Assembly (NCBI GenBank): GCA_024684035.1
Contig: JAIKXQ010000044.1
Location: forward strand, 17,322 to 81,321
Direction of reading: 5' to 3'
DNA length: 64,000 nucleotides
Source of the DNA: Eubacterium sp.
Lineage (GTDB): Bacteria > Bacillota > Clostridia > Lachnospirales > Lachnospiraceae
Shown piece after piece: positions 42,686-62,099 of the stretch; position 1 is the first letter of the stretch, and every line of letters begins with the position of its first letter. The notes under the pieces were generated by a model that worked only from the letters and a program-made list of their open reading frames with translations, searched no databases and was not told the origin of the DNA. Position numbers and translations under genes: made by a program.

Positions 42686-43417
42686 TCACCTCATCAGTCT
42701 GTTTAAACGATATCCTTTTCCCCATACAGTTTCGATCAGATTGTTGCGCCCGGTGTACACGGCCAGTTTCTTCCTGAGCCTGGAAATATACACCATGAGC
42801 GACTGCCTGTCCGACTCCTGATAGATGCCGAAGAGCTTTGTTCCGATATCCTCAAAACTCACCGGCTTTTCAGTATTCTGCATCAGATAGAGAAGCAGCT
42901 CATACTCCCGGTTGGAGAGCTGTACTTCCTGGCCGTCACAGGTAATCATCCTGCGATCCAGTTCCGCAACCAGCGGAGGAACAGAAATCGTCAGTTTTCC
43001 CGCTTCCTTCTGCTTCTGCTCCAGCTGCTGGGTTTTTCTGTACCAGCGGACATTGGCCATGATCCGCATGTAGAGTTCTGAGAAACTGCAGGGTTTTTCG
43101 ATATAGTCATCCGCCCCGGCATGAAAGCCCATAATCTTTTCTTCCTCCGGAGCCTTCTCCGTCAGAAAAAGCACCGGCACATCCGAGAAATCACGGATTT
43201 TTCTGCAGGCACTGACGCCGTCTTTCTCAGGCTCTTTTACATCCAGAACAACACAATCCGGCTGAAACTGCTCCACGGCATCCACGGCCATCTGCGAATC
43301 TGTCAGTGTCATCACTCTGCAGCTGGTTTTCGCAAAAGCGTTGTTCAACTCGATGATCTCCGTGTCATCGTCAATCAACAGAATCCTGAAGTTTTCGTCT
43401 CTCTCTTCTACGCTCAT
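42686..43417 (-). CDS. OmpR-family response regulator, orphan
   Basis: This 243-residue regulator has a receiver domain (about 10-125; IDDD acidic patch, phosphoacceptor Asp59 in VVLDV, Lys in EKPCS) and an OmpR/PhoB winged helix (about 145-240; LSNREYELLLYLMQN, then VYISRLRKKL and IETVWGKGYRL). No histidine kinase gene is in the window. Its ATG overlaps the stop of the kinase-glycosyltransferase gene (ATGA) and it is followed four bases later by the GT2-pyruvyltransferase gene, so it is translated with them. It may control this locus. Confidence 0.93.
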   Translation of the reverse strand: MSVEERDENFRILLIDDDTEIIELNNAFAKTSCRVMTLTDSQMAVDAVEQFQPDCVVLDVKEPEKDGVSACRKIRDFSDVPVLFLTEKAPEEEKIMGFHAGADDYIEKPCSFSELYMRIMANVRWYRKTQQLEQKQKEAGKLTISVPPLVAELDRRMITCDGQEVQLSNREYELLLYLMQNTEKPVSFEDIGTKLFGIYQESDRQSLMVYISRLRKKLAVYTGRNNLIETVWGKGYRLNRLMR

Positions 43418-45612
43418 TGCTGACCTCCCCTTTTTTCTCGCAATCGTTTTCTGATTTCCCCGGCAATGTACATTCTGTACGCCCGCTTCATATAGCGGTA
43501 GCCTGCCGCCTTCACTGACGCCCGTCCCCGAAGTCTTCCTCTGGCCTTCTCATAAAACTCTCTATACTCTCTTCCAAGTTTTGCTGCCACATCCAGGTAT
43601 CCGCTCATCTCCGCCTCTGTCTCCAGTCTCGCCAGATTTCCGAGACAGAAGGAAAGATCCCTCTCGAAGATTTCTTCGTCACCCAGCGCTTCCATGATGC
43701 CATTCTGCTTTCGCAACGCCGTACCGTAGTCTTCATAATAGAACGGTTCTCTTCTGTGACAGACACTGTCTTTCCGTTGCCGGTAGCAGTACAGACGCCT
43801 GCCGATCCACGTCGCTTTTCCGGCGCCGTCAAGAACCTCGGCATTAAATACAAGATCCTCCATGGCCTTCAAATCCGGAAATCTCCTGTCTCCGATGAGT
43901 TCCCGCCGGTAAAGTTTGTTCCAGCACCAGGTCACCATCCCCGCGAAATCATCCTGAAAATGCCTCAGGAGTTCCTTTCTTTCTTCGATCCTTAAGGGTT
44001 CTCCCGGCACGCTGTCGTCTTTCGGTGCATCTGCTCTTTGTTGCTCCTCTGCGTCAACTTCCGCTGATTCCGGCGAAGGACGCATCTTTGAAATCGCCCC
44101 CAAAGCCTCCGGCGACGGATGTGCGTCTGCATCAACTGCCCGTTCATGGCAGATGACTACGTCCACGTCTTCCCGCATGGCAACTCCGTACATTTCCTGC
44201 AGATAATCCGCCTCCATCCAGTCATCCGGATCCGCGAAGGCAAGCCATCGTCCCTTCGCCGCGTCCAGACCGGTATTTTTTGCGGCGGACACTCCCTGAT
44301 TTTCCTGCGTGAGAATCCTCACTGACCAGCCTTCCCGACTCTTACAGCCGGCCTGATATTCCTCCAGAATTCTTCCGCTTCCGTCTGTGGAGCCGTCATT
44401 CACAAAGATGACCTCCAGGCTTTTGCATTTCTGCGCGTCCAGGCCTGTCAAAAAGTCAGGAAGCCATTTTTCCATATTGTACACCGGGACGATCAGACTG
44501 ATTTCCGGACGAGACTGCTCTTCTTGTCCAAAGTCTGCCATCTCCCCGTCCTTTTCCGGCTTTCCTTCTCCGGATTTCGCTCTGACTGTATCTCCTGACA
44601 CAGCAGCCTCTCCATTACCGGAAGCCTCACTCTTCGTCTCATCCAGTTTTGCTGTCACCGCGTCCCGAATCTGACGGAGCGTATCCTTATCCTCCGGCCG
44701 GGTGACCTCATACACCGGTACCCCTGCGATGGCCAGCATGGTCTCCATCATCCAGGGCGGAACGCCGTATTCTTTATAGCAGGAGGAATTGTAGATACAG
44801 CCGAAGAGCTTTTTCAGTTTATCAATTCCCGTAAGCTCCTCGATTTCGACCTCCGTAACCGGAGCTTTCTTCAAAATCCAGATGGTCTCCAGCCTGTGGG
44901 GGCCCTGCTTGAAACTCTCTTTTTCCGACACGCCGTATTTCATCCGCTTCCCGTCGGGAACAAAGATCATATCTTCCCTGCTGCGCCCCTCGATGGCATT
45001 TTCCATTAGCCTTCGAAGAGGGTAGGCACCGTAGCCCATGACCCCCTCTTCTCCAAAGGAACGGAAGAGCACAGAATCGTCGGAGGCGAAACCTGCTCCA
45101 TCCGAGAGAAGCGCATCACTCAGCGTCGACTTTCCGCTGCCGCTGTCCCCGGTAATCAGAATCATACCTTTGTGTCCCTTCGGAAGAATCGCGCTTCCGT
45201 GAAAGATCATCTCTTTTCGCTGAGCCGCCAGCACCGTGAAAATATTGTTCAACAGCCACTGGTCTCTCCGGTAGATATCCTCCGTGAGGAAACGGCAGCG
45301 GATACAGTCCCCGTTGGAGACCAGAAAGAAACCGATGCCGTCGATGTAGATCTCCCGCCCCTCCGCTGTTTTTCTCTGAATGATGGTCGTGAGAACATCA
45401 TCCTTGTCCTTCAGTTTTTGTTTTTGCATCTCCGGCGTTCCCGAATCACCGACCGCCTCCCGGTATTTCAAAAGAGAAGCATAGCCTTCTTCCAGCGGAT
45501 CCAGATAAAGCCGCACGTCCGGCCGGATCTTTTCATCCGAACAACTCTCTGCAGCCGTCGGAATCTCAAACTCTGAGGCAACTCTCAGGTTGTAAATCTG
45601 ATATACATACAT
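43414..45612 (-). CDS. HPr-kinase-like (lasso tailoring kinase-like) domain fused to GT2 glycosyltransferase
   Basis: This 732-residue protein has an N-terminal HprK-like kinase (about 1-325): FHGSAILPKG with His138, Walker A GDSGSGKST (155-163), then GFASDDSVLF, the order seen in HprK-type kinases that phosphorylate lasso peptides (PadeK, ThcoK, PsmK). A Ser/Glu-rich linker (about 325-368) joins it to a GT2 domain (about 370-640) with ISLIVPVYNMEKWLPDFL, VIFVNDGSTDGSG, VSAAKNTGLDAAKG and FADPDD. One polypeptide could phosphorylate and glycosylate the same target. The start follows a G7-containing ribosome-binding site. The gene lies just beyond the precursor peptide gene, past a terminator and a dispersed repeat. 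The kinase substrate is inferred from context. Confidence 0.85.
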   Translation of the reverse strand: MYVYQIYNLRVASEFEIPTAAESCSDEKIRPDVRLYLDPLEEGYASLLKYREAVGDSGTPEMQKQKLKDKDDVLTTIIQRKTAEGREIYIDGIGFFLVSNGDCIRCRFLTEDIYRRDQWLLNNIFTVLAAQRKEMIFHGSAILPKGHKGMILITGDSGSGKSTLSDALLSDGAGFASDDSVLFRSFGEEGVMGYGAYPLRRLMENAIEGRSREDMIFVPDGKRMKYGVSEKESFKQGPHRLETIWILKKAPVTEVEIEELTGIDKLKKLFGCIYNSSCYKEYGVPPWMMETMLAIAGVPVYEVTRPEDKDTLRQIRDAVTAKLDETKSEASGNGEAAVSGDTVRAKSGEGKPEKDGEMADFGQEEQSRPEISLIVPVYNMEKWLPDFLTGLDAQKCKSLEVIFVNDGSTDGSGRILEEYQAGCKSREGWSVRILTQENQGVSAAKNTGLDAAKGRWLAFADPDDWMEADYLQEMYGVAMREDVDVVICHERAVDADAHPSPEALGAISKMRPSPESAEVDAEEQQRADAPKDDSVPGEPLRIEERKELLRHFQDDFAGMVTWCWNKLYRRELIGDRRFPDLKAMEDLVFNAEVLDGAGKATWIGRRLYCYRQRKDSVCHRREPFYYEDYGTALRKQNGIMEALGDEEIFERDLSFCLGNLARLETEAEMSGYLDVAAKLGREYREFYEKARGRLRGRASVKAAGYRYMKRAYRMYIAGEIRKRLREKRGGQQ

Positions 45613-45658
45613 AACTTCCCCCCCTTCTGTCTCCGGAACGCCGGAAACGTTTCAAGAA

Positions 45659-45825: not shown

Positions 45826-45835
45826 TAAAAAAGAA

Positions 45836-45865
45836 AACAGGATTTCCCCTATAGGAAATCCTGTT
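45836..45865 (-). terminator. Terminator directly after the lasso precursor gene
   Basis: AACAGGATTTCC (45836-45847) and GGAAATCCTGTT (45854-45865) form a perfect 12-bp stem with a 6-base loop. On the minus strand TTCTTTTTTATC follows. It begins 50 bases past the precursor stop and should make a short, abundant precursor transcript. Confidence 0.9.
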
Positions 45866-45915
45866 CCAAATCACTCCAAAAAAGTGTGTTTCTTGTCGCC
45901 TGCTAATCCAAATCC

Positions 45916-46101
45916 TTACTGAATGATATTCTCTCTAGGTGTACCAGACGCGAGACCATACTCTTCCTTCCATCCTTTAATTGCACCGTTCTCATCGAAA
46001 ACCGCATATTTTATGTAGTCTACGTTGTTCGGATTATTCGGTCCAAAAGCAGTCTGTGCAAGATTCAAAACTTTAAACTCAGGATTTACCCAATTTTTCA
46101 T
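45916..46101 (-). CDS. Candidate lasso-peptide precursor
   Basis: This 61-residue peptide begins MKNWVNPEFKVLNLAQTAFG. Trp4, Pro7, the hydrophobic Val11-Leu12 and Thr17 match the leader pattern recognised by PqqD-like proteins in Bacillota lasso precursors (W..P...VL....T). If Thr17 is the usual -2 residue, the core starts at Phe19 and Asp28 is position 10; if it starts at Gly20, Asp28 is position 9, a legal ring size. Asp28 is the only acidic residue in range. The core is Asn-rich (PNNPNN) and long (42-43 residues), with Tyr29, Tyr32, Tyr48, Ser52 and Thr54, but ends in Gln rather than Ser. AAAGGAGGAG precedes the ATG. It lies 141 bases after the cyclase gene. Confidence 0.75.
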   Translation of the reverse strand: MKNWVNPEFKVLNLAQTAFGPNNPNNVDYIKYAVFDENGAIKGWKEEYGLASGTPRENIIQ

Positions 46102-46128
46102 GATAGACTCCTCCTTTTATTCATGAAC

Positions 46129-46172
46129 ACGTATGATATGTGTATCATACGTTAGTCAATCATTCCGGGCAA
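46129..46172 (-). promoter_or_regulatory. Precursor-gene promoter overlapping an inverted repeat
   Basis: On the minus strand TTGCCC (46172-46167), a 17-base spacer and TATGAT (46149-46144) form a promoter. A perfect 10-bp inverted repeat, ACGTATGATA (46129-46138) and TATCATACGT (46143-46152), covers the -10 and probable start site. The peptide gene therefore seems to have its own, possibly repressed, promoter. Confidence 0.6.
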
Positions 46173-46242
46173 CTAATCTATCATTTCTGTAATATTCAAT
46201 TTTGTGATATAAGCATTAGATTTTAAACGTGTTATTTGTTTT

Positions 46243-48159
46243 TCACACGGGCTGTATCTGCTTCCTGTTCTTCTCCCAGCACAATTTCTCCACGCGATCC
46301 ATGTATCGAAGGAAGCAGGTCGTGTAGATGTGTCTCGTGAGATCAAAGTCCTCACAGTCTTCCAGCTTTCCATTTTCCAACTCCCGGATCGCCTTTCCTG
46401 TGTCAATCCGGAGATCCTCCGCGTGCTCACGGTAGATCCGAAGCCACTCGTCCACAATGGCATCCTTCTGCCGCAGGATTCTCAATTTCTGGTCCGCACT
46501 CTGAAGCCCCTGTTTCCTGCTCTTCAGAATATGCGGGGGCATCAACTCCTCCATATACTCCGTGATCATTCTCCTCATTTTTCCGTTTGCCGTGAATTGA
46601 TCCGGGGGGAGGGACATACAGAAGTCCACCATGCGCCGATCTCTGGTGGGATCCAGAAGCAGGACTCCGGAATACAGCGAGTGATGCTGGGAAAACTCCC
46701 CGTAATGACGGAAGGTATCCCTGCCGAAAAAGCAACGGTGATAGCCGGTCTCATTCTGCATCCACCGGTTCGTTCTCCGTTGATTTTCGTCCAGCCGCTT
46801 CCGGGCTCCCGTTTTTTTCAGATAAGACTCCTGCACATAACCGGTTCTTCTTTCGCTTTTTGAAGACCGACAGACAATATCACGGATGGTTGTCAGCCAC
46901 ATACTCTTTCTCGTATAGTGCCGCACCTCATGCATCCGGTTGATCTCCCGCCGGAGGCGGAGCAAATGTCCCCGACAAAGGAGCCTGGCAAAATAATGTC
47001 TGGCGTTGTCGTAGGACACGGTGCCGTTTCCGAACATGCCGCCGATGATGACCCTGCAGCCGTCCTCTGCCGCCTTTTTCATAATTCCCTCGATCCAGAG
47101 AGAATTCTCCGGGGATTTGTAGGGGATCTCACAGACCTTCTGATACTCCGGCGCGGAAAACCAGGGATGCATCTCCGGAAAATCGCAGAGATGAAGATCT
47201 ATATTCTTATAGAATTCCGCGGTTTTTTTCACTGCCTCAGACTCATCTGTCTCATAGTGTTCTCCCCTGTCGATGACACAGCCTTTGAGGGGAACGGACG
47301 TGTATGCCACCAGATTCTCCCCTCTATTCCTGAGGATCTCCGTGGCAAGGGCGGCGACAGATGTAGAGTCATAGCCTCCGGAGAGAAAGATCGCGGTCTT
47401 TCCTGCAGATCGCAGCGTCTGCTCCGTACACTTTCTGTACAGTTTCAGAAAGGCCTCCTTGTATTCTTCATCGGAACCCAGGCGAAGCCGCTTCCTCTTG
47501 CCGATGGGATCCCAGTAATACTCCTTTTTCAGCTCCTTCTCCGTCACCAGTACTTTCTGGGCAGGCGCGATCCGAAAGACCTCCGAAAAAGGCGTCTCCT
47601 CACATTCCGTAAACACATTCAGATTGTCCTGTCCGATGTAATCCGACAGATACCGCTCATTGACGTGTAGTTCTTTCCGGACCTGCGCCAGGGGTTCCAG
47701 AAGGGAGGAAAAATACAGCTTCCCATCCTCGATCGTATAGTAGACGAAATGGTAGCCCACGGAATCCGAGAACATCAGCACCCGCTTCTTTGAGGCGTCA
47801 TACCAGACGGCCGCGCAGGCTCCCACGATCTTCTCCGGGGTATGGAGCGGATCCTCCTCCAGAAGTCGCATGAGGATTTTTCCGTCGGGAAGCTCCTCCT
47901 CCCCGGCCTTGATCAGCTCGTCCCTGTTCTGGATGGTTACATCCGCCGTGAAATAACAGCTGCCAGTCTGATCCGGAAGGTTCTCCTTCTCCGCTTCTTT
48001 TGTGAAGTACTGGATGCCGCAGCCCAGATACACGCCGTCCTCCTCCAGCGTCTCCCATCGGTCGATGCGACAGCCGTCAAAGGCTTCCCGCATAATCCGC
48101 TTCTCTTCCTCCGGAATGATCTTTTTCTCAAAATCGATGATTCCCCAGATTGCCGACAT
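46243..48159 (-). CDS. Lasso-peptide macrocyclase (asparagine-synthetase-like, protein C)
   Basis: This 638-residue protein has the two-domain layout of AsnB but starts MSAIWGIIDF, lacking the Cys2 needed for glutamine hydrolysis, as lasso cyclases do. The ATP-pyrophosphatase domain has the PP motif FLSGGYDSTSVAALA (near 265). The later block DPTRDRRMVDFCMSLPPDQF and KSRKQGLQSADQ are hallmarks of lasso cyclases, which activate an Asp/Glu side chain with ATP to close the ring on the core N-terminus. The ATG at 48159 follows AAGGAGAG; a 25-codon upstream extension is rejected. It lies between B2 and the precursor gene. Confidence 0.9.
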   Translation of the reverse strand: MSAIWGIIDFEKKIIPEEEKRIMREAFDGCRIDRWETLEEDGVYLGCGIQYFTKEAEKENLPDQTGSCYFTADVTIQNRDELIKAGEEELPDGKILMRLLEEDPLHTPEKIVGACAAVWYDASKKRVLMFSDSVGYHFVYYTIEDGKLYFSSLLEPLAQVRKELHVNERYLSDYIGQDNLNVFTECEETPFSEVFRIAPAQKVLVTEKELKKEYYWDPIGKRKRLRLGSDEEYKEAFLKLYRKCTEQTLRSAGKTAIFLSGGYDSTSVAALATEILRNRGENLVAYTSVPLKGCVIDRGEHYETDESEAVKKTAEFYKNIDLHLCDFPEMHPWFSAPEYQKVCEIPYKSPENSLWIEGIMKKAAEDGCRVIIGGMFGNGTVSYDNARHYFARLLCRGHLLRLRREINRMHEVRHYTRKSMWLTTIRDIVCRSSKSERRTGYVQESYLKKTGARKRLDENQRRTNRWMQNETGYHRCFFGRDTFRHYGEFSQHHSLYSGVLLLDPTRDRRMVDFCMSLPPDQFTANGKMRRMITEYMEELMPPHILKSRKQGLQSADQKLRILRQKDAIVDEWLRIYREHAEDLRIDTGKAIRELENGKLEDCEDFDLTRHIYTTCFLRYMDRVEKLCWEKNRKQIQPV

Positions 48160-48291: not shown

Positions 48292-48732
48292 TTATTTGTC
48301 TCCCACACGTATTCGTTCAACAACCGCCAGATTCTCCCCGCTGCCTCCGGTGACAAAAAGCGTCCCGCAGCGAACCCAGGCGTGTGCGATCATACCTTCT
48401 TTCTCGTCCTGCCCCACGCCCAGATACATGGTGGCCGGCACTTTCGCCCTGCGGAGAAGTTTGACAGCTGTCAGCGCCTGCACCAGGCAAAGGGATTTCC
48501 AGAGGGTGTGTCCGCAGATCCTTGTGATCTCACTGCCGATAATGAAGGCCTTTCTGTAATCCTCCTCCGCCGCTTCCTTTGGAGACTCCTCGCCCCGCTC
48601 TCCGGCCGAGAGAATCAGCGCCTTGCTCCTTCCCAGGAGAATCTGAAGCCGGTACCAGGCGGCATACAGGTACACCCTCAGTGCGATTTTTTTATGTCTG
48701 TTATATCGAAAAAAACGATAGAGCTTTCTCAT
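48292..48732 (-). CDS. Lasso-peptide leader peptidase B2 (transglutaminase-like)
   Basis: This 146-residue protein is of the Transglut_core3 type. Catalytic Cys82 lies in WKSLCLVQALTAVKLLRRAK and His117 in IAHAWVRC. The acidic third residue, normally about 12 residues after the His, is not obvious (GTLFVTGG). In lasso pathways B2 cuts the leader after the RRE protein B1 delivers it. Its ATGA start overlaps the stop of the Wzx flippase gene, so the two are translationally coupled. The 132-base gap to the cyclase gene holds only a short GAATGTC/GACATTC hairpin. Confidence 0.88.
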   Translation of the reverse strand: MRKLYRFFRYNRHKKIALRVYLYAAWYRLQILLGRSKALILSAGERGEESPKEAAEEDYRKAFIIGSEITRICGHTLWKSLCLVQALTAVKLLRRAKVPATMYLGVGQDEKEGMIAHAWVRCGTLFVTGGSGENLAVVERIRVGDK

Positions 48733-50370: not shown

Positions 50371-51618
50371 TCAATCTCTGGTCAACTTCAAATCCATACT
50401 CTTGTACAGGTCAATCATTTTCTTTGATTCTATTTTGTCCATATCACAGACTTTCTTTGCCCGCTCCACTGCCTCCTTATTCCGGAGTCCGCGGAACGCC
50501 CGCATGACCCAGCCTGCAGGAAGCAGGTACGGTCGCTTCTCCAGCCAGGGGTAAAGTTCCTGCATCTTTGCATAGGATGGGAAGAGAAAACTGCACTTCG
50601 CGTTTTTTTCTTCTCCCGAAGATAAACTGTCTTCCGCCAGCATCGACCAGATCCCGTTCTCTGCCTTTCCGTGAACACCACTGTCGATCATATACATCAG
50701 CAGATTCACCTGTTCTTCTGTCAGAGGTCTCTGCTCGAGCCAGGCAAAGGCAAGCTCCCGGATCTTTCTCTCAAAGGGCACCAGCCCGCAGGCCTCCAGC
50801 CCCTTCCGCAGCCTCTCCGGCTCCAGTTCCTCTTTCTTTTTTGTGCAATAGACATACACATCCACCAGATGACGAATCCCGCAGCCGGTTTCATAGAAAT
50901 GTCTTGCGGAGTGGGCAATCATGTAAATATAAAAATCCACAGGGTCAAAACTCTGACCGAATTCTCTTCCCTTCAGAGCTTTTCTGCAGGACCGGTCCCT
51001 GAAATACAAATATTGACGCCGGTCTCTGTGCCTGTCGTACAGATCCCAGTGCAGCTCCACCACAAGGAACGGCTCCTGAAGAAAACAGTGATGATGATCT
51101 TCCGACGCGCCTTTGGTATAGCCGAGTTTTGTGAGTACTTTCTCCGCCTCTTCGATCTGGGATTCATCCACCACAATATCGATATCCCCCATATCCCGAA
51201 GCTCATAGTTCGGATAAATCCGCTTCATCATCGTCCCCTTCAGAAACTGATGACGAATCTTTTCCTTCTCGAAACACACACCGATCTCTGTGGCCGAGCG
51301 CATCTGAATCAGCGAGCGGATCATACTATAATGAACCCGTGACCGCAAATTCTCCTTCCCGGCTTCCTCACAATAATCAATGATCTGTGGCAAAATTACC
51401 GGATCCATCATATTTTCATATGAAGCCTGACAGAGCCACGTGCTGTCCTCCCTGCTGATTTCCTCCGGAAAAGTCTCTGCTTTTCCGGAGAGTCCCCGGG
51501 CAATTACTTCTCCCAGGATTCTGCATCTGCGCAGAATATCCGCGTCACTGCTCTCACTTAGCACAATGCCCGCGTCCACGGTCCTTAACTTCTGATCGAT
51601 CTTCGCAACTGCTTCCAT
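50371..51618 (-). CDS. NTP_transf_5-family nucleotidyltransferase
   Basis: This 415-residue protein contains FLKGTMMKRIYP followed by ELRDMGDIDIVVDE, the nucleotidyltransferase GxxxxR-DxD region with metal-binding Asp residues, then VELHWDLYDRH and the AHSARHFYETGCGIRHLVDVYVY block. Proteins of this family occur in lasso-peptide clusters (for example PsmN of the pseudomycoidin cluster, linked to sugar addition on the phosphorylated peptide) and in polysaccharide loci. ATG 51618 follows AAGGAG. It lies between CotH and Wzx genes. A role in tailoring the peptide is likely but unproven. Confidence 0.85.
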   Translation of the reverse strand: MEAVAKIDQKLRTVDAGIVLSESSDADILRRCRILGEVIARGLSGKAETFPEEISREDSTWLCQASYENMMDPVILPQIIDYCEEAGKENLRSRVHYSMIRSLIQMRSATEIGVCFEKEKIRHQFLKGTMMKRIYPNYELRDMGDIDIVVDESQIEEAEKVLTKLGYTKGASEDHHHCFLQEPFLVVELHWDLYDRHRDRRQYLYFRDRSCRKALKGREFGQSFDPVDFYIYMIAHSARHFYETGCGIRHLVDVYVYCTKKKEELEPERLRKGLEACGLVPFERKIRELAFAWLEQRPLTEEQVNLLMYMIDSGVHGKAENGIWSMLAEDSLSSGEEKNAKCSFLFPSYAKMQELYPWLEKRPYLLPAGWVMRAFRGLRNKEAVERAKKVCDMDKIESKKMIDLYKSMDLKLTRD

Positions 51619-51670
51619 CCCAAATCTCCTTCTCATCCGGGTTCCGGTTTGTCTCTCAATTCTCTTGTTT

Positions 51671-53635
51671 CTATTTTTCGCCCACGGTTTCCAGCGTGTA
51701 TCTCATGATGTACTCCGCTCTCTTTCCAAAAAACGTTTCAATCTTGCCGGCCTCCATCTGATATAATTTGTCATCCGCCTCACCGGAAAAGCGAAGATAA
51801 CTGGCCCGAACGGCCTTTCCGAATACTTCTGTATATCCATCCAGAATGCGTCCCACATACTCCGAACTCAGCTTCCCGCACAAATCCTCCATGGCCTTCT
51901 TCAGACCGGAGCGAAAAGAAGGACTTTTGAGCATAGACTGCAGGAAAGGATCTTCGGTCACTCCCGGCTGGAAAAAGGTATCGATGGTGGCTGTAGAAAG
52001 CTGACCAAGGTAGCCGTTATCCATCGTGTTTTGCATTTTTCCGAGAATCCAACGCCACCGCGAGTCTTCCTTGCCGGATCCGGAACCACCATCTGTCCTC
52101 CAGACCGTCGGGTTCTCTTTCCCGTGCTCTGAATTGGCCAGGAACATATTGAAACAGAGGTAGTAGGTATAACTATCCACGTCCATCCGTTCCGTGACTT
52201 TCTTATAGTTTTCCTCCACAGACAGATTCGTATTCTCTACATACGAGACAAGATCCGAAAAATCTTCAGAAGCTCCCTCGCCGGTGCCCGATACCAGAAT
52301 CTTCGTTTTATCATTGATTCCGTATTTTCGCCGGATCATCGACGCATCGCAGGGTGTTCGCAGCATGTACACCCCCCAGTATTCTCCGTTGATAAATACC
52401 GTACAGAGCTGATAGTCTGCCGAACCAACCGGTGTTCCCTCCACCAGATCTGCTGTCAACATCTCCCTGATCTTATACATTTGATCTGTACCTCCGTTGA
52501 AGAGACAGATTTTTTTTGAATCCGTGTATGAACAGAGCGATGACCCCTTCGTAACCTTCCGTGTGAGATGATCCAGCACAAGACCTCTCTGGTTCAGCTG
52601 CACATAGTCATCCTTCAGCGTGGAGAGTTTTACGCTTCCCTCCCAGGTCTTGTCTTTTCCCCTCTCGAAAAATTCCGCATAGGCGTCTCTGGATACATCA
52701 TCGTAATAGTTTCCCTTGCCGTCGGTTTCTTCCCCACGTGCAACCGCATCCTCGTAATGACGACCGGCCACATAGATTCCGTTTTCATAACTGGCGAATC
52801 CATCCGGATCCAGACCGATTGCCAGCACAGGTAACTCCCGGATGGCGCTTTCCTGGCTGACACCAACGAAATAAGTCTGATCCCTCCGGTAGTTCTCTTT
52901 GCCATCCGGGCTGACTGCCAGAGCCCTCAGCAATGTTCCTTTGATCTGTGTAGACGGTTTAAAATCCTCCCCCATCGTTCCCTTCGTAATCGCCAGATTG
53001 TTTCCTGTCCGGCTGCTGACAGAAACACTTCCCAGATACTTCTTCGATTTCTCTGTGGGAACAGTCCCGTCCGTCGTGTAGTAAATATCCCAGCCATCCG
53101 GAGCATGAATCTCGACCCTCACATCCTCCGGATAAAAACCTCCGGGAAGAGAAAAAATACACTTGTTACTTTTACTCTCCTCTTCAGAAGGGACAAGTAT
53201 TGAAGCCCTGCTGTTTCCTGTGTTGTCATAAATTGACACCACATGATCTGTTTCCGTCCCAAGCTCCTTCTCCAGCGGTATCTCTATTTCCTTATCCGGC
53301 CTTAACCTGGTAATATTCTCAGGAAACTTTTCGGATTCCCCGTCAACAGAAATTGTAAAGTCTTTCACAACGACATCCTCGCTGTCCTTCAGAGTGACAA
53401 GAATTTTCTGCCTGTCTTTCATCCTGATTTCGATCCGGTTGGTTTCAACAGACTTCGTCTTTACCTTTTCCTCGTTCGGCTGATCCTGCTCGCTTTTTTC
53501 CTCCAGTTTGACCTCTGTCTCCTGCCGGGCATTGCGCGAATACATAAAGAGTCCGATCAGCGCAAGAAGTGCCACAAGACTAAGCAGGATTATGACGATG
53601 TCTTTCCGGGCAATTTTCTTTTTGTCACTTTCCAT
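51671..53635 (-). CDS. CotH-type protein kinase, membrane-anchored
   Basis: This 654-residue protein has one membrane helix (about 13-32) and an extracytoplasmic part. Residues about 165-200 resemble a chitobiase C-terminal-like module (GWDIYYTTDGTVPTEKSKKY). A CotH domain follows (about 310-600), with KGSSLCSYTDSKKICLFNG, VFINGEYWGVYMLRTPCDASM and a DNGYLGQ stretch. CotH enzymes are atypical kinases that phosphorylate proteins at Ser/Thr; in cell-surface loci their substrates are mostly unknown. If active here it would act outside the membrane, where ATP is scarce, which is odd. GAGGGG precedes the ATG, overlapping the VanZ gene by 11 bases. Confidence 0.85.
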   Translation of the reverse strand: MESDKKKIARKDIVIILLSLVALLALIGLFMYSRNARQETEVKLEEKSEQDQPNEEKVKTKSVETNRIEIRMKDRQKILVTLKDSEDVVVKDFTISVDGESEKFPENITRLRPDKEIEIPLEKELGTETDHVVSIYDNTGNSRASILVPSEEESKSNKCIFSLPGGFYPEDVRVEIHAPDGWDIYYTTDGTVPTEKSKKYLGSVSVSSRTGNNLAITKGTMGEDFKPSTQIKGTLLRALAVSPDGKENYRRDQTYFVGVSQESAIRELPVLAIGLDPDGFASYENGIYVAGRHYEDAVARGEETDGKGNYYDDVSRDAYAEFFERGKDKTWEGSVKLSTLKDDYVQLNQRGLVLDHLTRKVTKGSSLCSYTDSKKICLFNGGTDQMYKIREMLTADLVEGTPVGSADYQLCTVFINGEYWGVYMLRTPCDASMIRRKYGINDKTKILVSGTGEGASEDFSDLVSYVENTNLSVEENYKKVTERMDVDSYTYYLCFNMFLANSEHGKENPTVWRTDGGSGSGKEDSRWRWILGKMQNTMDNGYLGQLSTATIDTFFQPGVTEDPFLQSMLKSPSFRSGLKKAMEDLCGKLSSEYVGRILDGYTEVFGKAVRASYLRFSGEADDKLYQMEAGKIETFFGKRAEYIMRYTLETVGEK

Positions 53636-57033: not shown

Positions 57034-58400
57034 CGTTTTTTTATGTACCTCGACTTTGTTTTTCCGTTTTCAGTCAAATACTCCGGTGCTATTACCACAG
57101 CAATCGCAATGTTGATATAGAGATACTTCAATGTCTGAAGGGCATCCACGTAATAAAGATTCAGAAGATAAAACACAGTTCCCACAAGCATGGCTCTCGC
57201 AACCACCGATTTTCGAAGAGACTCCAGAAGCATAATCAGCACGGACCAGCACAGGAACAGACAGTAAGAGATGACGCCGGGCCAGGCATAGCGGATATAC
57301 TCCGCAAGATAATACTGATCGATGGAGTAAACAGGAAATCCGTTCACCATGCCGGCGAAATGTCTCTTACGTCCCATCCCCAGAACAGGGTTTAACCAGT
57401 CAATGGTCCAGATTCCCTTCATTACTTCCCTGTAGTGTGTGCTGGAAGTCAGGTCTCCGACTGCCGCTCCAAACTGAGCTGCCCATGTGGTATCGAAGAC
57501 CGTGTCCACCAACATTGCAAGCTGAAGGAGGACATAGTTCCCGAAAGACGTTTTCTGACATACAACCAGTACAACCGAGAATCCCAGGAAAAAGAATCCC
57601 AGAACTGCCGCAGAAATCTTTTTTTCTCTCTTTTCCTGAAGAAAAAATAGCGGAACAAGCTCGGCGAGAAAAACCCCCTGGGTGGACCTTGATCCGGTCA
57701 TAAAGACATCCACAATCAGCAGGATTACCAGAAGCGGCCGCTTCAGATAACTGATCCGGTACCTTCCGTCCACTTTCTCCAAAACCGCAAAGGGCAGCAT
57801 GGTCACCATCATCAGCCCGTACCCCAAAGACATGACCGCATTACCCATGATCCTGTAGTGACCCGACCGGATGAATCTTCCGGTATAAGTTCCATGCAAG
57901 GTCTCCAGATAAGCAAAGGGAGATTCCTGCATGAAACATTCCACGATCCCCAGAATTGTCAAAATCCACACACAGATGGTGATCAATCGGATAAAACCGT
58001 CAAGTCCGAAGACATAGCGGATCATGTAAATCAACAGATACATGGTCAGGATCTCTATGAAGGGATTGAAGAAAGCATTGAAATCCGCCCGAAGCAGCAT
58101 GGTATAAATCAAAACGGCCATATACGGGAAAAGCACCAGGCTCATAGGCTCCCGGTAAATCATGTACAGCAGATCCCTCATTCGCTGCCTCTCGGCGAAC
58201 ATATCAAAAAGAACCACCAGTATCATGAGCCGCCATACCGAGAGATCAAAAAAGGGAACGGGAAGCCCGAAATACTGTGGCATCACATACATCACGAAGA
58301 CAAAGAGAACACTGATCTGCCGGAAATACTCCCGCTCCCTGCCCGTCCGTATGTATTTACTTTTCTCCTCATATCTGTGAAGATCAATTCCTGCCGTCAT
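56997..58400 (-). CDS. Wzy/O-antigen ligase-like polymerase
   Basis: This 467-residue membrane protein has about 10-12 helices, a large periplasm-side loop and the segment VFMTGSRSTQGVFLAELVPLF, the TGSRS pattern of the Wzy_C family. The long loop after it (SSTHYREVMKGI then GMGRKRHF) matches the family. It should polymerise flipped repeat units on the outer face of the membrane. Its ATGA start overlaps the stop of the upstream GT2 gene. Confidence 0.88.
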   Translation of the reverse strand: MTAGIDLHRYEEKSKYIRTGREREYFRQISVLFVFVMYVMPQYFGLPVPFFDLSVWRLMILVVLFDMFAERQRMRDLLYMIYREPMSLVLFPYMAVLIYTMLLRADFNAFFNPFIEILTMYLLIYMIRYVFGLDGFIRLITICVWILTILGIVECFMQESPFAYLETLHGTYTGRFIRSGHYRIMGNAVMSLGYGLMMVTMLPFAVLEKVDGRYRISYLKRPLLVILLIVDVFMTGSRSTQGVFLAELVPLFFLQEKREKKISAAVLGFFFLGFSVVLVVCQKTSFGNYVLLQLAMLVDTVFDTTWAAQFGAAVGDLTSSTHYREVMKGIWTIDWLNPVLGMGRKRHFAGMVNGFPVYSIDQYYLAEYIRYAWPGVISYCLFLCWSVLIMLLESLRKSVVARAMLVGTVFYLLNLYYVDALQTLKYLYINIAIAVVIAPEYLTENGKTKSRYIKKRWIRELRTCGSV

Positions 58401-59341
58401 GCCTTATCACCCTTTCTGTTTCTGATGGCCATGAGCATTTCCACAGGCATAGATCGCTTTCTGTGATAATACTTTCCGTAAAACAAAAGCGGAATCCCCA
58501 GCCAGAGACGGCCGTTCCGGATCAACTCAATCCTCATAGAAACTGCACGGATTTCCTTTTCCATCAGTTCCAGTTTTTTTTCGCCCAAGCCGATCTCCTG
58601 TCCGAAGCGGTATGTCTGCTCGTGACTTTTCTTCAATTCTTCCAGATATCTCAGCCGTTTCCGCACATCGTGTTCTCTATGCAGTGTTACATTTGATGAA
58701 TGCAGCCGCCTTCGAAGGGTAGGATGATGCCAGAAATACAGCCCGTCCATACAGAGGGCAAGCTTCCACACATATTCATCGTGTGCCCAGCCCGGGTACC
58801 ACCAGTCTCTGATCCGGTCGAGAAACGACTTTCTCAGAATCATCGTGCAGCCCTGACAGCCGATGAAAACGTTTTCGGGAACAAATAAAAGATGTTCCAG
58901 GCTGTCATCTCCCTTGAAAGAGGCCAACTCCCACTCCGGAATTTCCGGGGCGTCATCGGTGCATGAAAAGGGTTCGAATTCCGAACCGGCCAGAAGAACT
59001 TCCGGATGAGCCTTCATCATTTTTTCCATCTCCAGGATCCGATCCGGCATCCAGACGTCGTCCTGGTCACAGAAACAGATGAGATCCCCCGATGCTTCGA
59101 AGAGAGCCTGTGCGAAGTTCGTTCCATATCCCAGATTCTCCCGGTTCACTGAAAACCTCCAGTCACCATCCGGATGATGGCGCATAAGAAAGTCTTCCAC
59201 GATCCCGGCTGTCCCGTCTGTGGAACAGTCATCGTGAATGATCACCTCGTCCACAGGCCGCGTCTGTCCGAGAATTGATTCGAGCTGTTCAGCAATATAT
59301 TGTTCTCCGTTGTAGGTAGCCATAACAACCGAAATCCTCAT
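58397..59341 (-). CDS. GT2 glycosyltransferase (rhamnosyltransferase-like)
   Basis: This 314-residue enzyme has ISVVMATYNGEQYIAEQLESIL, VIIHDDCSTDGTAGIVEDF, LGYGTNFAQALFEASGDLIC and FCDQDDVW, the last two close to rhamnosyl- or glucosyltransferases of the GT2 family. It has no membrane helix. It lies five bases after the previous GT2 stop and overlaps the polymerase start, in a tightly packed operon. The sugar is not determined. Confidence 0.92.
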   Translation of the reverse strand: MRISVVMATYNGEQYIAEQLESILGQTRPVDEVIIHDDCSTDGTAGIVEDFLMRHHPDGDWRFSVNRENLGYGTNFAQALFEASGDLICFCDQDDVWMPDRILEMEKMMKAHPEVLLAGSEFEPFSCTDDAPEIPEWELASFKGDDSLEHLLFVPENVFIGCQGCTMILRKSFLDRIRDWWYPGWAHDEYVWKLALCMDGLYFWHHPTLRRRLHSSNVTLHREHDVRKRLRYLEELKKSHEQTYRFGQEIGLGEKKLELMEKEIRAVSMRIELIRNGRLWLGIPLLFYGKYYHRKRSMPVEMLMAIRNRKGDKA

Positions 59342-59345
59342 GCCT

Positions 59346-60332
59346 TCATCCTTTCATGACTTTTCCAAGAATCTTCGCGCAGATTCTGCTGTTCCACGGA
59401 TGTACGTTTCTGATATACAGCCCCGTCTTCCCTGCAAAGTATGTATTGTCCCGGTACCGCGGGAATTCTTTTTTTACAAACTCAAACGTGCGGCAGACAA
59501 GTGAGCGGGCCAGAGCCGCGTCCCGCACCCTTCCAATCCTTGAAAGATTACTACAGAGTGCAATCTTCACACAGAAATACTCCAGCTCCTTTTGATACAT
59601 CTCAAAGAATCCCTTTTCTCTGTAGAAAGCCAGCATGTCTTCCAGCACAGGAAAAATATCTGCCACCCGGCATCCCCTGTCAGCTGTCATCGTGGAATTT
59701 TCCCGAATGCTGTAATAGACCAGAGCCTCATCCAGGTAGGCTGTCTTCCGGATATAGGGCACACATTTCCCGTACCAGGAAGTGTCTTCGTATATGACCC
59801 CCTCCGGGAAGGACACACCTCTGTGAAAAAGGATCTCCCTGCGGAATATCTTATTCCAGGGAGACACCTGGGGATCAATGAGCATCTCGCGGCTCTCCCG
59901 GTGTGCGCGAATCCTCCCTCTGGGGGATATCTCCCTAATCTCTCCGGCGCTCTCCAGCATGGCGTGATATCTACACTCCACATAGTCTGCGCCACTCTCA
60001 CAGGCAAGGTCGTACATTTTCCTGTACATATCCGGATCCACATAGTCATCCGAATCCGCAAAGCCGATATAAAGACCCTCTGCCTTTCGGATTCCGAGAT
60101 TTCTGGCCGCTGCCTGTCCACGGTTCTCCTGATGGATAACTCTCACTTTCAAAGGATACTTTTTCTCGTATTCCTGTAAGATCTCCGGCGATTCATCTGT
60201 AGATCCGTCATTGATCACCAGAATTTCTATCTCCTCAAGAGACTGGTTGACAAGGGCGTCCATGCAACGCCGCAGATAACCGGCCGTGTTATAGACCGGA
60301 ACAATCACGCTGACTCTGATCTCATCCGACAT
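59346..60332 (-). CDS. GT2 glycosyltransferase
   Basis: This 328-residue protein has the N-terminal GT2 domain: VSVIVPVYNTAGYLRRCMDAL, ILVINDGSTDESPEIL, GQAAARNLGIRKAEG and GFADSDDYV with the DxD. The C-terminal third is helical. Its start overlaps the Wzz/kinase stop by 11 bases. Expected role: one sugar transfer in repeat-unit assembly. Confidence 0.92.
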   Translation of the reverse strand: MSDEIRVSVIVPVYNTAGYLRRCMDALVNQSLEEIEILVINDGSTDESPEILQEYEKKYPLKVRVIHQENRGQAAARNLGIRKAEGLYIGFADSDDYVDPDMYRKMYDLACESGADYVECRYHAMLESAGEIREISPRGRIRAHRESREMLIDPQVSPWNKIFRREILFHRGVSFPEGVIYEDTSWYGKCVPYIRKTAYLDEALVYYSIRENSTMTADRGCRVADIFPVLEDMLAFYREKGFFEMYQKELEYFCVKIALCSNLSRIGRVRDAALARSLVCRTFEFVKKEFPRYRDNTYFAGKTGLYIRNVHPWNSRICAKILGKVMKG

Positions 60333-61764
60333 TTGTCTGCACCTTCAGCTTCTCTTTCTTCTTCACCTTTTTATTCTCGCGGAAACCGTAATTTCTGGCC
60401 TTCACTCCGTAATTGTAATCCGGTGAAGTTCTGGATATGCCGTTGTACACAAAACCACGGATCGCCGCTCCGGCGCTCTCGAGTTTCCGGATGATCAGAT
60501 CCACCCTCTCCGTCCTAGTCACGTTCTCACGTACCACCAGCACGTAGCCGTCTGCCTCTCCTGCCATACAAAGGGCATCGGAGAAAACCCCGAGCGGAGG
60601 AAGATCCACAAGAATCAGGTCGTATTCCTCCCGGCATTTACTAAGAACGCTCTGGAAGCCCTCTCCAAACAGAAGCTCAACATCCTCATCGGAAAGGTCA
60701 CCGAGCGGAAGATAGTTCACACCGTTTTCCATAATTTCCGGTCTAATTTCATCCGTTTCCTTCCGGAGGAAGACAGCCAGGTCTGTATTCTCTGACGTAA
60801 CTTCCGGTTTTTCCGGCTTTCCGGATTCCTCCGGCTCCTTCCGCAAATCCGCGTTCAGAACGATCGTCTTCTTGCCGACAGCAGCTGCTGCCGCCGCAAG
60901 ATTCAAGGCAATTGTTGTTTTTCCCTCTCCGGCATCCGCGCTTGTCAGTGCGTACAGCTGACAGACCTCATCTTCCCTGTTATTAAGAATGGAAGCACGG
61001 AGATTCCGGTAGGCCTCTGTCAGCTCTTTCTCACAGCCTTTCCGGAGAGTAGCAGCATCAGCTGTTGGCATCTGCGGAATGTCCGCCATGATTTCGGGAG
61101 TGAACAGATCCGTGATCTCATAACGCCTGCGGATCTTTGTGTCATTGAGACCAGTAAAAATAAACCAGATCATCGACAACACAATACCACCGATTGCGCC
61201 GATCAATGCCATCATGCATACACTGGTGGATGAATAGGGTGTTCTGGGAACTTCCGCCCTGTCCAGAATCTCAATTCCTCCGGATTTGACTACGCTGATG
61301 ATACGATCCGGCGCCAGCTCACCGATGGTATTGGCAATCAGCTGCGCGTGCTCCGGATTCCTGTCATAGACATATACCTTGAATACAGAGGTAGTATCCA
61401 CCGCCTCCGCGCCGATTTCACTGTCCAGGATACGGTAGTTCATATATGCGTCCATACCGCTGGCTTCCAGAACATCCTGCAGGAAGGAGCGGCTCCTAAG
61501 GATCTGCATGTAGCTGTCCGTCAATCCCCTTGCCTGAGCGATATCGTTGTTGGTGATATTAACATCCGTGTCTGTCATCACTTCCGGATTGCTGTAGACA
61601 TACATGGATATCTCAGCCCGGTAGATCGTCGATCCCTTGACAAGTCCGACGCCTCCCACCAGAAGTGCTCCCACCAGCCCGGACAGGATAATTGCCCCCA
61701 TCCTTGAGCGAATAATCCACAGAAGCTTTTCCAGATGTAAATTCGTGATCATTCTCTGAAACAT
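60322..61764 (-). CDS. Fused Wzz/BY-kinase polysaccharide co-polymerase
   Basis: This 480-residue protein joins a Wzz domain (about 1-200, two membrane helices near 25-45 and 185-205) to a bacterial tyrosine kinase domain (about 255-440). The kinase has ALTSADAGEGKTTIALNLAA (Walker A), VLNADLR (Walker A') and LILVDLPPLG (Walker B). The C-terminal tail has DYNYG and NYGF tyrosines, a short autophosphorylation cluster. Such proteins set chain length and export. In most Gram-positive bacteria these domains are separate proteins (CpsC/CpsD), so the fusion is less common here. The Walker A' Asn in place of the usual Asp is a small oddity. The start follows GAGGGGG. Confidence 0.9.
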   Translation of the reverse strand: MFQRMITNLHLEKLLWIIRSRMGAIILSGLVGALLVGGVGLVKGSTIYRAEISMYVYSNPEVMTDTDVNITNNDIAQARGLTDSYMQILRSRSFLQDVLEASGMDAYMNYRILDSEIGAEAVDTTSVFKVYVYDRNPEHAQLIANTIGELAPDRIISVVKSGGIEILDRAEVPRTPYSSTSVCMMALIGAIGGIVLSMIWFIFTGLNDTKIRRRYEITDLFTPEIMADIPQMPTADAATLRKGCEKELTEAYRNLRASILNNREDEVCQLYALTSADAGEGKTTIALNLAAAAAAVGKKTIVLNADLRKEPEESGKPEKPEVTSENTDLAVFLRKETDEIRPEIMENGVNYLPLGDLSDEDVELLFGEGFQSVLSKCREEYDLILVDLPPLGVFSDALCMAGEADGYVLVVRENVTRTERVDLIIRKLESAGAAIRGFVYNGISRTSPDYNYGVKARNYGFRENKKVKKKEKLKVQTNVG

Positions 61765-61829
61765 TGTAGTCCCCCTCAATCCGTCATCTCCAAAACGAGT
61801 GGTCTGATCCTTGATCCACGACCCTTACT

Positions 61830-62099
61830 TTAGATAAAACCGTAGTTCTCCATTTCCCCCAGGAACTGCCGGACAGAGGTTTCGCACTCTTCTCTCGACA
61901 CCTCATACTCCGCAAGCAGAGCATCGACAATTTCCGAAAAACTCTTCTCACCCTTTTCCAGCAGCTCCCAGATCTCGTTGCCCGCGCCCCGGATCATGAA
62001 ATATTTTCCGGTATCGTAGTCAATCATCACCTTCTCTCCGGACAGATCTGTCACCGTCAGATTTTTCTTCATTTTGTATTTCACGTTTGTATCAACCAT
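61830..62099 (-). CDS. PqqD-like RiPP recognition element (lasso B1-like)
   Basis: This 89-residue protein has the PqqD/RRE fold: MIDYDTGKYFMIRGAGNEIW, then LLEKGEKSFSEIVDALLAEY and VRQFLGEMENYG. In lasso pathways it binds the leader and presents the precursor to B2. It is encoded 14 kb from the cyclase, between the truncated sugar-transferase gene (8-base overlap) and the Wzz/kinase gene. AAAGGAG precedes the ATG. Some PqqD-like proteins in polysaccharide loci have other roles, so its assignment as the B1 partner rests on the locus also having precursor, B2 and cyclase. Confidence 0.88.
   Translation of the reverse strand: MVDTNVKYKMKKNLTVTDLSGEKVMIDYDTGKYFMIRGAGNEIWELLEKGEKSFSEIVDALLAEYEVSREECETSVRQFLGEMENYGFI

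What the first reader, a model, noticed from the sequence alone, without database searches (positions are those of the whole stretch)
43414..62099. Complete lasso-peptide machinery dispersed inside a polysaccharide locus
Seen: precursor A (45916), AsnB-like cyclase without Cys2 (46243), transglutaminase-like B2 (48292), PqqD-like B1 (61830), HprK-like kinase (43414) and NTP_transf_5 nucleotidyltransferase (50371), all on one strand among Wzx, Wzy, Wzz/kinase, GT2 and GT32 genes. Known: A, B1, B2 and C define lasso pathways, and the kinase plus nucleotidyltransferase pair is known from pseudomycoidin-type clusters. Inference: the peptide is made with, and may be tailored by or attached to, the polysaccharide. 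The interleaving, with B1 14 kb from C, is not the usual compact cluster.
Basis: partly seen in the sequence, partly recalled or inferred. Interest (0 to 1): 0.93.

Follow-up and report, generated by a model that had tools for sequence, protein, structure and literature searches.

The report
Lasso-peptide genes interleaved with polysaccharide genes
In this bacterium (a relative of Eubacterium cellulosolvens) and in several related genera, genes that would make a knotted "lasso" peptide are shuffled in among genes predicted to build a surface polysaccharide, and one gene joins a predicted peptide kinase to a predicted sugar transferase, so the peptide is likely made together with the polysaccharide and probably carries sugars; no peptide has been measured.

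Summary
Window 40576-63876 (minus strand) is a predicted Wzx/Wzy polysaccharide locus containing lasso genes A, B1, B2 and C, a nucleotidyltransferase and an HprK-like kinase. [Eubacterium] cellulosolvens LD2006, in the same genus, has all these genes in the same order, fusion included. Blautia parvula and G376 (Butyrivibrio group) share most of the order. Lasso B2 genes in the family lie beside polysaccharide genes more often than comparison stretches do: at least 3 such genes in 11 of 18 versus 1 of 32 windows, p about 1e-5. The two species have lost the lasso-type ABC exporter and the catalytic half of the initiating sugar-transferase. Embedding of paeninodin-type lasso clusters in capsule loci was published for Bacilli in 2026. 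The E. cellulosolvens precursor, with Thr-3/Gly1/Asp9 and a tail serine, was published in 2020. The finding is therefore a new variant of a known kind. New here are the conserved interleaved Lachnospiraceae composite, the kinase-glycosyltransferase and kinase-nucleotidyltransferase fusions, and the loss of the exporter. Attachment to the polysaccharide is not shown and needs mass spectrometry.

The parts
45916..46101 (-). lasso precursor A, 61 aa: leader with WxxPxF motif, then T-A-F, predicted core GPNNPNNVD... (Gly1-Asp9 ring) and a long tail with GWKEEYGLASG
   Evidence: orthologue L062:12038-12229
46243..48159 (-). lasso macrolactam cyclase C (AsnB-like, no Cys2, SGGYDS ATP site)
   Evidence: 75% identical orthologue in E. 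cellulosolvens LD2006
48292..48732 (-). lasso leader peptidase B2, Cys82 and His117 conserved in 34 of 34 aligned B2s
   Evidence: NF033537 over cut-off
61830..62099 (-). B1, PqqD-like RiPP recognition element
   Evidence: PF05402; similar to TbiB1 5v1u, E 3e-11
43414..45612 (-). HprK-like kinase (about residues 1-345) fused to a GT2 glycosyltransferase (about 366-732)
50371..51636 (-). NTP_transf_5 nucleotidyltransferase
   Evidence: PF14907 144 bits
48729..50345 (-). Wzx-like MOP-superfamily flippase; its end overlaps the start of B2 by 4 bp
51671..53635 (-). CotH-kinase domain protein with CHB_HEX and Fn3-assoc domains and an N-terminal hydrophobic segment; conserved in the composite locus
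   Evidence: PF08757 104 bits
53625..54353 (-). VanZ-like membrane protein
   Evidence: PF04892
54224..55123 (-). GT32-type glycosyltransferase
   Evidence: PF04488
55056..56072 (-). capsular polysaccharide synthesis glycosyltransferase
   Evidence: PF05704 235 bits
55972..57033 (-). GT2 glycosyltransferase (c)
   Evidence: PF00535
56997..58400 (-). Wzy-like polymerase (Wzy_C below its cut-off)
   Evidence: matches in 8 of 299 family genomes including its own
58397..59341 (-). GT2 glycosyltransferase (b)
   Evidence: PF00535
59346..60332 (-). GT2 glycosyltransferase (a)
   Evidence: PF00535
60322..61779 (-). Wzz/BY-kinase fusion (chain-length control)
   Evidence: PF13614 over its cut-off, Wzz below
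62092..62904 (-). CpsE/WbaP-like protein cut to its N-terminal domain (270 aa, no Bac_transf domain); overlaps the start of B1
   Evidence: intact 465-aa homologue with Bac_transf in Blautia parvula
62915..63571 (-). PssE/Alg13-like glycosyltransferase
   Evidence: PF04101
63394..63876 (-). PssD/Alg14-like protein
   Evidence: PF08660
42686..43417 (-). OmpR-type response regulator; next to the lasso/polysaccharide genes in E. cellulosolvens and Blautia as well
40576..42681 (-). GT2 plus polysaccharide pyruvyl transferase
   Evidence: PF00535, PF04230
45834..45867 (-). intrinsic terminator between A and the HprK-GT2 gene; a like hairpin plus T-run follows A in E. cellulosolvens
   Evidence: z -4.0 and -3.4

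Best explanation
The window holds a paeninodin-like lasso gene set (A, B1, B2, C, an HprK-like kinase fused to a GT2, and an NTP_transf_5 enzyme) interleaved with genes of a predicted Wzx/Wzy polysaccharide pathway, and its product is likely a phosphorylated, sugar-bearing lasso peptide made and exported together with that polysaccharide. Steps, all inferred from homology: B1 binds the WxxPxF leader of A. B2 cuts near the conserved Thr. C closes a Gly1-Asp9 ring around the long tail. The HprK domain phosphorylates the tail serine. The nucleotidyltransferase and the fused GT2 add sugar to that phosphate. With no lasso-type ABC exporter found in this genome, the glycosylated peptide would leave by the polysaccharide route (the Wzx-like flippase) and act at the cell surface or in the polysaccharide layer.
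For: Conserved interleaving: E. cellulosolvens LD2006 has all 21 genes from PssD to the GT2-pyruvyl transferase in the same order, 52% (A) to 94% (response regulator) identical (B1). Blautia parvula and G376 share most of the order, and G612, G603 and G454 share large parts. Enrichment: 20-kb windows around B2 hold at least 3 polysaccharide genes in 11 of 18 cases versus 1 of 32 comparison windows (p 8.5e-6); with full-length windows only, 9 of 13. Of 299 family genomes, 8 have the window's Wzy type and 9 have B2 over its cut-off; 5 have both (p 3.5e-7 with the own genome, 7e-6 without; in one of the five, G203, on different contigs). Fusions: HprK-GT2 here, in E. cellulosolvens (705 aa) and in P0011 (68% identity); HprK-NTP_transf_5 in G096 (690 aa). 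Selection: dN/dS 0.08-0.31 for lasso genes, like the polysaccharide genes. Exporter: the lasso-type ABC exporter is 56% identical in Blautia, but the best full-length hit in the own genome and in E. cellulosolvens is 32%, outside the locus.
Against: No product has been measured. In the closest experimental system the lasso and LPP masses could not be found in the native host, and deleting the LPP nucleotidyltransferase changed nothing in the heterologous host (PMC13381572). In 28 of the 44 lasso stretches screened (some loci held twice) a dedicated ABC exporter lies in the stretch, so Wzx export cannot be general. Other relatives without one in the stretch held (G047, L066, L067, L070, L076) were not searched genome-wide, so the loss is not shown to go with the fusion. 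Three of the 8 Wzy-type loci have no lasso genes in the stretch read (G116, G179, G250), so the polysaccharide does not need the peptide. Only 2 of 16 genomes of the genus have the cyclase and precursor. The last residue of A is Gln, not the terminal Ser that paeninodin kinases use; the tail Ser is internal. A terminator separates A from the kinase gene.
Confidence: 0.5

Rival explanations
1. The product is a free secreted lasso peptide (antimicrobial or signal), tailored with phosphate and sugar. It only shares a regulated, frequently exchanged surface-polysaccharide locus and has no physical link to the polymer.
For: 28 of 44 lasso stretches (some loci held twice) encode an MsbA-like ABC exporter. 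Many lasso peptides are antimicrobial (general knowledge). A diverges faster than the 12 other genes compared (dN/dS 0.31, 49% identity). Distribution is patchy.
Against: The core and tail are conserved across genera and metagenomes (the hits were found with a profile of the same pattern, so this is partly built in). No exporter of this type found in the window's genome or in E. cellulosolvens. The kinase is fused to a GT2. No immunity gene was recognised in the Pfam scans, although a VanZ-like gene is present.
Confidence: 0.28
2. The peptide is a regulator of polysaccharide synthesis: the phosphorylated lasso peptide signals to the BY-kinase or the response regulator rather than being part of the product.
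For: A response regulator lies next to the set in the window, E. cellulosolvens and Blautia. A is set off by its own terminator in both species of this genus.
Against: Does not explain the NTP_transf_5 gene, the kinase-GT2 fusion or the exporter in relatives. No direct evidence was found.
Confidence: 0.1
3. Chance co-location: mobile lasso modules land repeatedly in polysaccharide loci because these are hotspots of exchange.
For: Patchy presence: 9 of 299 family genomes for B2 over its cut-off. Lasso genes sit at different places and on different strands in some loci. Popov et al. count many gains and losses in Bacilli (discussion of PMC13381572).
Against: Much of the composite order is kept between Blautia and the window at 44-45% cyclase identity. 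Gene fusions across the two sets. Association p about 1e-5.
Confidence: 0.1
4. The AsnB-like protein does not make a lasso; the product is linear or differently linked, as in linear polyphosphorylated peptides.
For: C scores 180 bits against a cut-off of 525 for the curated lasso cyclase. LPPs share kinase, RRE and nucleotidyltransferase and also sit in capsule loci (PMC13381572).
Against: Cyclase and B2 are both present. Of 51 leader-defined precursors 36 have Gly at T+3, and 35 of these have an acidic residue at core position 8 or 9. W-type leader motif, not the LPP Y-type. No signal peptidase among the 20 proteins scanned.
Confidence: 0.08

Closest known systems
Paeninodin-like lasso clusters inside capsular polysaccharide loci of Bacilli (Popov et al. 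2026, PMC13381572; parts 1-2, discussion and passages read)
   Same: Lasso A, B1, B2, C with HprK-like kinase and NTP transferase, W-type leader motif, embedded in polysaccharide loci
   Different: Those are Bacilli, and the clusters that led to that paper also carry a second RRE and a signal peptidase; its LPP sets have an MsbA-like exporter. Here it is Lachnospiraceae, with B1 about 14 kb from C inside the polysaccharide genes, the kinase fused to a GT2, no such exporter found in the genome, and a truncated CpsE
Rumen lasso clusters of Butyrivibrio, Lachnospira and E. cellulosolvens (Sabino et al. 2020, PMC7533575; sections 14 and 16 and passages read)
   Same: Their Table 3 lists the same E. 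cellulosolvens LD2006 precursor (L062). They state Gly1, Asp at 8-9, Thr at -3 and a conserved C-terminal Ser, and note HPr kinase, nucleotidyltransferase and glycosyltransferases nearby
   Different: They discuss the accompanying enzymes as tailoring genes. In the sections and passages read, the polysaccharide locus, the conserved composite order and the fusion are not described; 'polysaccharide' occurs once, in a reference title
Pseudomycoidin (psm) cluster, Bacillus pseudomycoides (passages of the review PMC9266682; original paper not held)
   Same: Kinase phosphorylates the C-terminal Ser, and the PsmN nucleotidyltransferase is needed for one or two hexoses on the phosphoserine
   Different: 'polysaccharide' does not occur in the review; here the predicted core is 42 aa and its Ser is internal
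Hungate1000 lassopeptides (PMC13289728; passages read)
   Same: Gx7D-type core ([GA]xxxxxxxD) in 12 core peptides, most clusters in Butyrivibrio, with a nucleotidyltransferase gene in the figure legend
   Different: The word 'polysaccharide' does not occur in its text

Membership tests
lasso peptide gene cluster | B2 leader peptidase of the lasso family | tested here: met
   NF033537 60.3 bits, cut-off 33; Cys82 and His117 conserved in 34 of 34
lasso peptide gene cluster | RRE (B1) | tested here: met
   PF05402 70.7 bits, cut-off 23.4; matches TbiB1, E 3e-11. NF033536 69.8 bits is below its cut-off of 80
lasso peptide gene cluster | macrolactam cyclase C | tested here: inconclusive
   Best NCBIfam match is the lasso cyclase NF033535, but 180 of 525 bits; Asn_synthase domain, SGGYDS present, no Cys2
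lasso peptide gene cluster | precursor with RRE motif, leader Thr, N-terminal Gly and Asp/Glu at 7-9 | tested here: met
   W4xxP7xF9, T17, G20, D28. Thr is at -3 if Gly1 is the first residue; with Thr at -2 the ring would have 10 residues
lasso peptide gene cluster | threaded lariat product | not testable with these tools
   needs mass spectrometry and NMR
paeninodin family | curated precursor model NF033524 | tested here: not met
   window A 13.3 bits, cut-off 27; 22 of 29 members of alignment A2 match it at E up to 0.1, best 2.6e-7
paeninodin family | HprK-like kinase and W-type leader motif | tested here: met
   motif definition from PMC13381572
paeninodin family | phosphorylated serine as last residue | tested here: not met
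   A ends in ...ENIIQ; its tail Ser is in GLASG. The terminal-Ser rule is taken from passages of PMC9266682
linear polyphosphorylated peptides (LPP) | SpI signal peptidase, Y-type leader motif, no cyclase | tested here: not met
   cyclase and B2 present, W-type leader; no signal peptidase among the 20 proteins scanned with Pfam
Wzx/Wzy polysaccharide locus | flippase, polymerase, Wzz/BY-kinase, several glycosyltransferases | tested here: met
   Wzx, Wzy and Wzz are below their Pfam cut-offs
Wzx/Wzy polysaccharide locus | own initiating sugar-phosphate transferase (Bac_transf) | tested here: not met
   only the N-terminal CoA_binding_3-like part remains. Three Bac_transf genes lie on other contigs. 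The window ends at the contig end, so more genes may lie beyond

The most novel reading that the evidence does not exclude
The lasso peptide is a ribosomally made anchor, cap or primer of the polysaccharide. The HprK half phosphorylates the tail serine, the nucleotidyltransferase and fused GT2 start a glycan on that phosphate, the locus glycosyltransferases extend it, and Wzx carries the peptide-glycan out. This would explain why the two species that carry the fusion lack both the lasso exporter and the catalytic half of the usual initiating sugar-transferase.
Probability: 0.1. Interest if true: 0.92.

Novelty: new variant of a known kind. Interest (0 to 1): 0.55.

Why it matters
The role of paeninodin-type lasso peptides is unknown, and their placement in capsule loci has so far been reported for Bacilli. 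A conserved interleaved locus across Lachnospiraceae genera, kinase-glycosyltransferase and kinase-nucleotidyltransferase fusions, and a lineage without the lasso exporter turn it into a testable idea: these peptides may be glycosylated surface components and not free antibiotics. E. cellulosolvens LD2006 and Blautia parvula NBRC 113351 carry the locus and are named strains, so the test is feasible.

Tried and rejected
Genome-contig scan with the cyclase alone found nothing; it was repeated with a four-sequence alignment. I first took the Thr(-3)/Gly1/Asp9 pattern for new. Sabino et al. 2020 already state it, so it is not claimed. The 117 of 120 proteins with that pattern (198 passed the threshold and 120 were listed) came from a profile of the same pattern. 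The leader-defined set is therefore used for the count: 36 of 51 with Gly at T+3, 35 of those 36 with an acidic residue at core 8 or 9. In that call the G477 and G420 rows were left out, the leader filter required an early W with P or A three residues after it, and one of 52 unique sequences had no Thr at the right distance. In an earlier count 7 of 74 rows without an early W were dropped; it labelled 28 of 55 unique sequences Thr -3/Gly or Ser1/acidic 9.

The polysaccharide count uses only homologues of the window's own polysaccharide proteins, so it is conservative for both arms. Five of the 18 lasso windows were shorter than 20 kb (contig ends), and G115 contributes two windows. The window's own locus is not among the 18. 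G203 (0) and G045 (0, 6-kb contig) show no polysaccharide gene beside B2; G127, G047, G556, G587 and G603 show only 1-2. The 32 comparison regions were spaced by me along long contigs of eight of the lasso-positive genomes, not drawn by a generator; one of them (3 genes) also passes the threshold.

Of the 16 cyclase loci, a precursor was seen in 15 (not L070) and a B2 within the stretch held in 11; for two more (L063, L064) B2 lies further along the same contig. In G203 the Wzy locus carries HprK- and cyclase-like genes at the edge of the fetched stretch, while B2 is on another contig. In E. cellulosolvens my ORF caller first hid PssE, GT2a and Caps_synth behind antisense ORFs; tblastn shows them in place. 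Promoter matches near A are at chance level.

The statement that embedding in polysaccharide loci was found described for Bacilli only rests on searches of an open-access library (listings and abstracts; six papers opened in part).


Full report
What is there. The minus strand from 63876 down to 40576 reads, in transcription order: PssD/Alg14, PssE/Alg13, a 270-aa CpsE-like N-terminal domain, B1, Wzz/BY-kinase, GT2a, GT2b, Wzy-like, GT2c, Caps_synth, GT32, VanZ, CotH, NTP_transf_5, Wzx-like, B2, C, A, HprK-GT2, response regulator, GT2-pyruvyl transferase. Many neighbours overlap or nearly abut: B1 starts inside the end of the CpsE-like gene, and B2 starts inside the end of Wzx. The C start is best placed at MSAIWG (about 48159). 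A has a good ribosome-binding site and is followed by an intrinsic terminator; a like hairpin with a T-run follows A in E. cellulosolvens.

The kinase is one ORF with a GT2 glycosyltransferase. The fusion is not an assembly accident: E. cellulosolvens LD2006 has it as one 705-aa ORF (Pfam hits for both halves), and database proteins P0010 (97%) and P0011 (68% identity over 99%) show it too. P0065 (832 aa) is a more distant HprK-domain protein with GT2 domains. A different fusion, HprK with NTP_transf_5 (690 aa, L050:8821-10893), occurs in G096. PF07475 is below its cut-off for the window, E. cellulosolvens and G096 proteins (just below, 33.1 of 33.3, in G096). A profile of 12 kinases from these loci finds HprK chains of the PDB (1jb1, E 5e-10). 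The AlphaFold model of the window's kinase half (pLDDT 82) matches PEPCK (E down to 2e-9, TM about 0.5 on the model) and HprK structures (E 2e-7 to 4e-6, TM 0.28-0.32 on the model, up to 0.60 on the target). Walker A, the DD pair and an Arg are invariant in the 12 kinases.

Relatives. E. cellulosolvens LD2006 is in the window's genus (its genome appears there as G635, same contig places). It has all 21 genes of the list above in the same order, plus the helicase/nuclease gene next to them: for example PssD 93%, B1 87%, GT32 88%, C 75%, B2 78%, Wzx 75%, HprK half 84%, GT2 half 64%, response regulator 94%, A 52%. B1 is about 14 kb from C there too. All 13 gene pairs compared are under purifying selection (dN/dS 0.03-0.31), A being the fastest. 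In Blautia parvula NBRC 113351 (complete genome) the order is PssD, PssE, full-length CpsE, two further genes (one a Polysacc_synt flippase), B1 on the other strand, C, A, A, HprK, Wzz/BY, GT2a, GT2b, Wzy, Caps_synth-GT2c, GT32, VanZ, CotH, NTP_transf_5, B2, ABC exporter, response regulator, GT2-pyruvyl transferase. G376 has PssD, PssE, CpsE (467 aa), B1, Wzz/BY, GT2a, GT2b, Wzy, Caps_synth, GT32, VanZ, CotH, NTP_transf_5, Wzx, GT2-pyruvyl, B2, exporter, response regulator, GT2c, and then HprK and C, so that B1 sits between CpsE and Wzz/BY as in the window and 27 kb from C. G612, G603 and G454 share Wzy, GT32, VanZ, CotH and NTP_transf_5 with B2, C and HprK. Within the window's genus 2 of 16 genomes have the cyclase and the precursor family.

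Is the association more than chance? In family genomes with a B2 gene, 20-kb windows around B2 hold at least 2 polysaccharide genes in 14 of 18 cases and at least 3 in 11 of 18. Thirty-two comparison windows from eight of the lasso-positive genomes gave 1 and 1 (p 4e-8 and 9e-6). Restricted to full-length windows the second figure is 9 of 13. Of 299 family genomes, 9 have B2 over its cut-off, 8 have the window's Wzy type and 5 have both (p 3.5e-7; 7e-6 leaving out the window's genome). In G203 the two lie on different contigs. Three Wzy-type loci (G116, G179, G250) have no lasso genes in about 39 kb, so the peptide is an accessory of the polysaccharide locus.

The peptide. A leader-based scan, which does not use the core, gave 74 precursor-like rows in the loci held and 3 in the reversed DNA. 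Among 51 unique ones with Thr 13-14 residues after Trp, 36 have Gly three residues after that Thr, and 35 of these have an acidic residue 8 or 9 positions into the core so defined. Four others have Cys at the classical +1 position. Sabino et al. 2020 had stated this pattern, with Thr at -3, and list the E. cellulosolvens precursor. An alternative reading, Thr at -2 with a 10-residue ring, is not excluded by sequence. The tail is long (33 residues after Asp9), with a shared G[WY]....[FY]G.AS stretch in the closest relatives. Each of the two species also has a second precursor of this family elsewhere in the genome, beside the same lipoprotein gene and with no lasso enzymes next to it in the stretches read. 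It may be processed in trans.

Losses in these two species. An ABC exporter of one type lies in 28 of the 44 lasso stretches screened, some loci counted twice. It is 56% identical in Blautia, but the best full-length match in the window's genome and in E. cellulosolvens is a 32% identical ABC transporter outside the locus. Some other relatives (G047, L066, L067, L070, L076) also show none in the stretch held; their genomes were not searched. The CpsE-like protein stops before the Bac_transf domain in both species (270 and 302 aa), while Blautia's has it. Three Bac_transf genes lie elsewhere in the genome. That both losses go with the kinase-GT2 fusion suggests, but does not show, that the peptide is handled by the polysaccharide machinery here; with two related species it is one evolutionary case.

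Mechanism and status. Shown by calls: gene content, conserved interleaving, fusions, the missing exporter type in two genomes, purifying selection. From published work: HprK-like kinases phosphorylate lasso precursors, and PsmN is needed for hexoses on the phosphoserine (PMC9266682 passages). Inferred: ring closure on Gly1-Asp9, phosphorylation of the internal serine, sugar transfer by the fused GT2, exit through Wzx, and residence at the surface.

Novelty. Embedding of paeninodin-type lasso clusters in capsular polysaccharide loci is in print for Bacilli (PMC13381572), and rumen Lachnospiraceae lasso clusters with kinase, nucleotidyltransferase and glycosyltransferase genes are in print too (PMC7533575). 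I therefore file this as a new variant of a known kind.

Noticed in passing
G000:C92:23652-23825 (L010:1495-1668), L184:1501-1677: Orphan second lasso precursor of the same family, also in E. cellulosolvens beside the same lipoprotein gene, with no lasso enzymes next to it in the stretches read; possible substrate in trans.
   Followed up: partly
L059:1-1983 (own genome C45), L180 (E. cellulosolvens C16): A second lasso-type cyclase, about 32-33% identical to the window's; in E. cellulosolvens it lies with two precursor-like ORFs and an HprK-like gene. In the window's genome it is at a contig end.
   Followed up: partly
window 3154-15288: 4044-aa ORF of repeated domains that by eye look SpaA/Cna-B-like, with a C-terminal membrane segment: a probable giant surface adhesin. 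Translated only.
   Followed up: no
window 37103-40417: 1104-aa AAA_11/AAA_12 helicase with C-terminal MTES_1575 nuclease domain beside the locus; 92% identical in E. cellulosolvens, with any match in 5 of 16 genomes of the genus. Possibly a defence gene.
   Followed up: partly
window 46102-46240; L062:11915-12037: GATAGATT/AATCTATC-like arms bracket the ribosome-binding site of A in both species and may form a stem over it (folding z only about -0.7).
   Followed up: partly
window 51671-53635: CotH-kinase domain protein is a regular member of the composite locus in E. cellulosolvens, Blautia, G376, G612, G603 and G454; its role there is unknown.
   Followed up: no
window 32956-36710: Riboflavin genes (ribD, lumazine-binding ribE, ribBA, ribH) downstream of the locus.
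   Followed up: no
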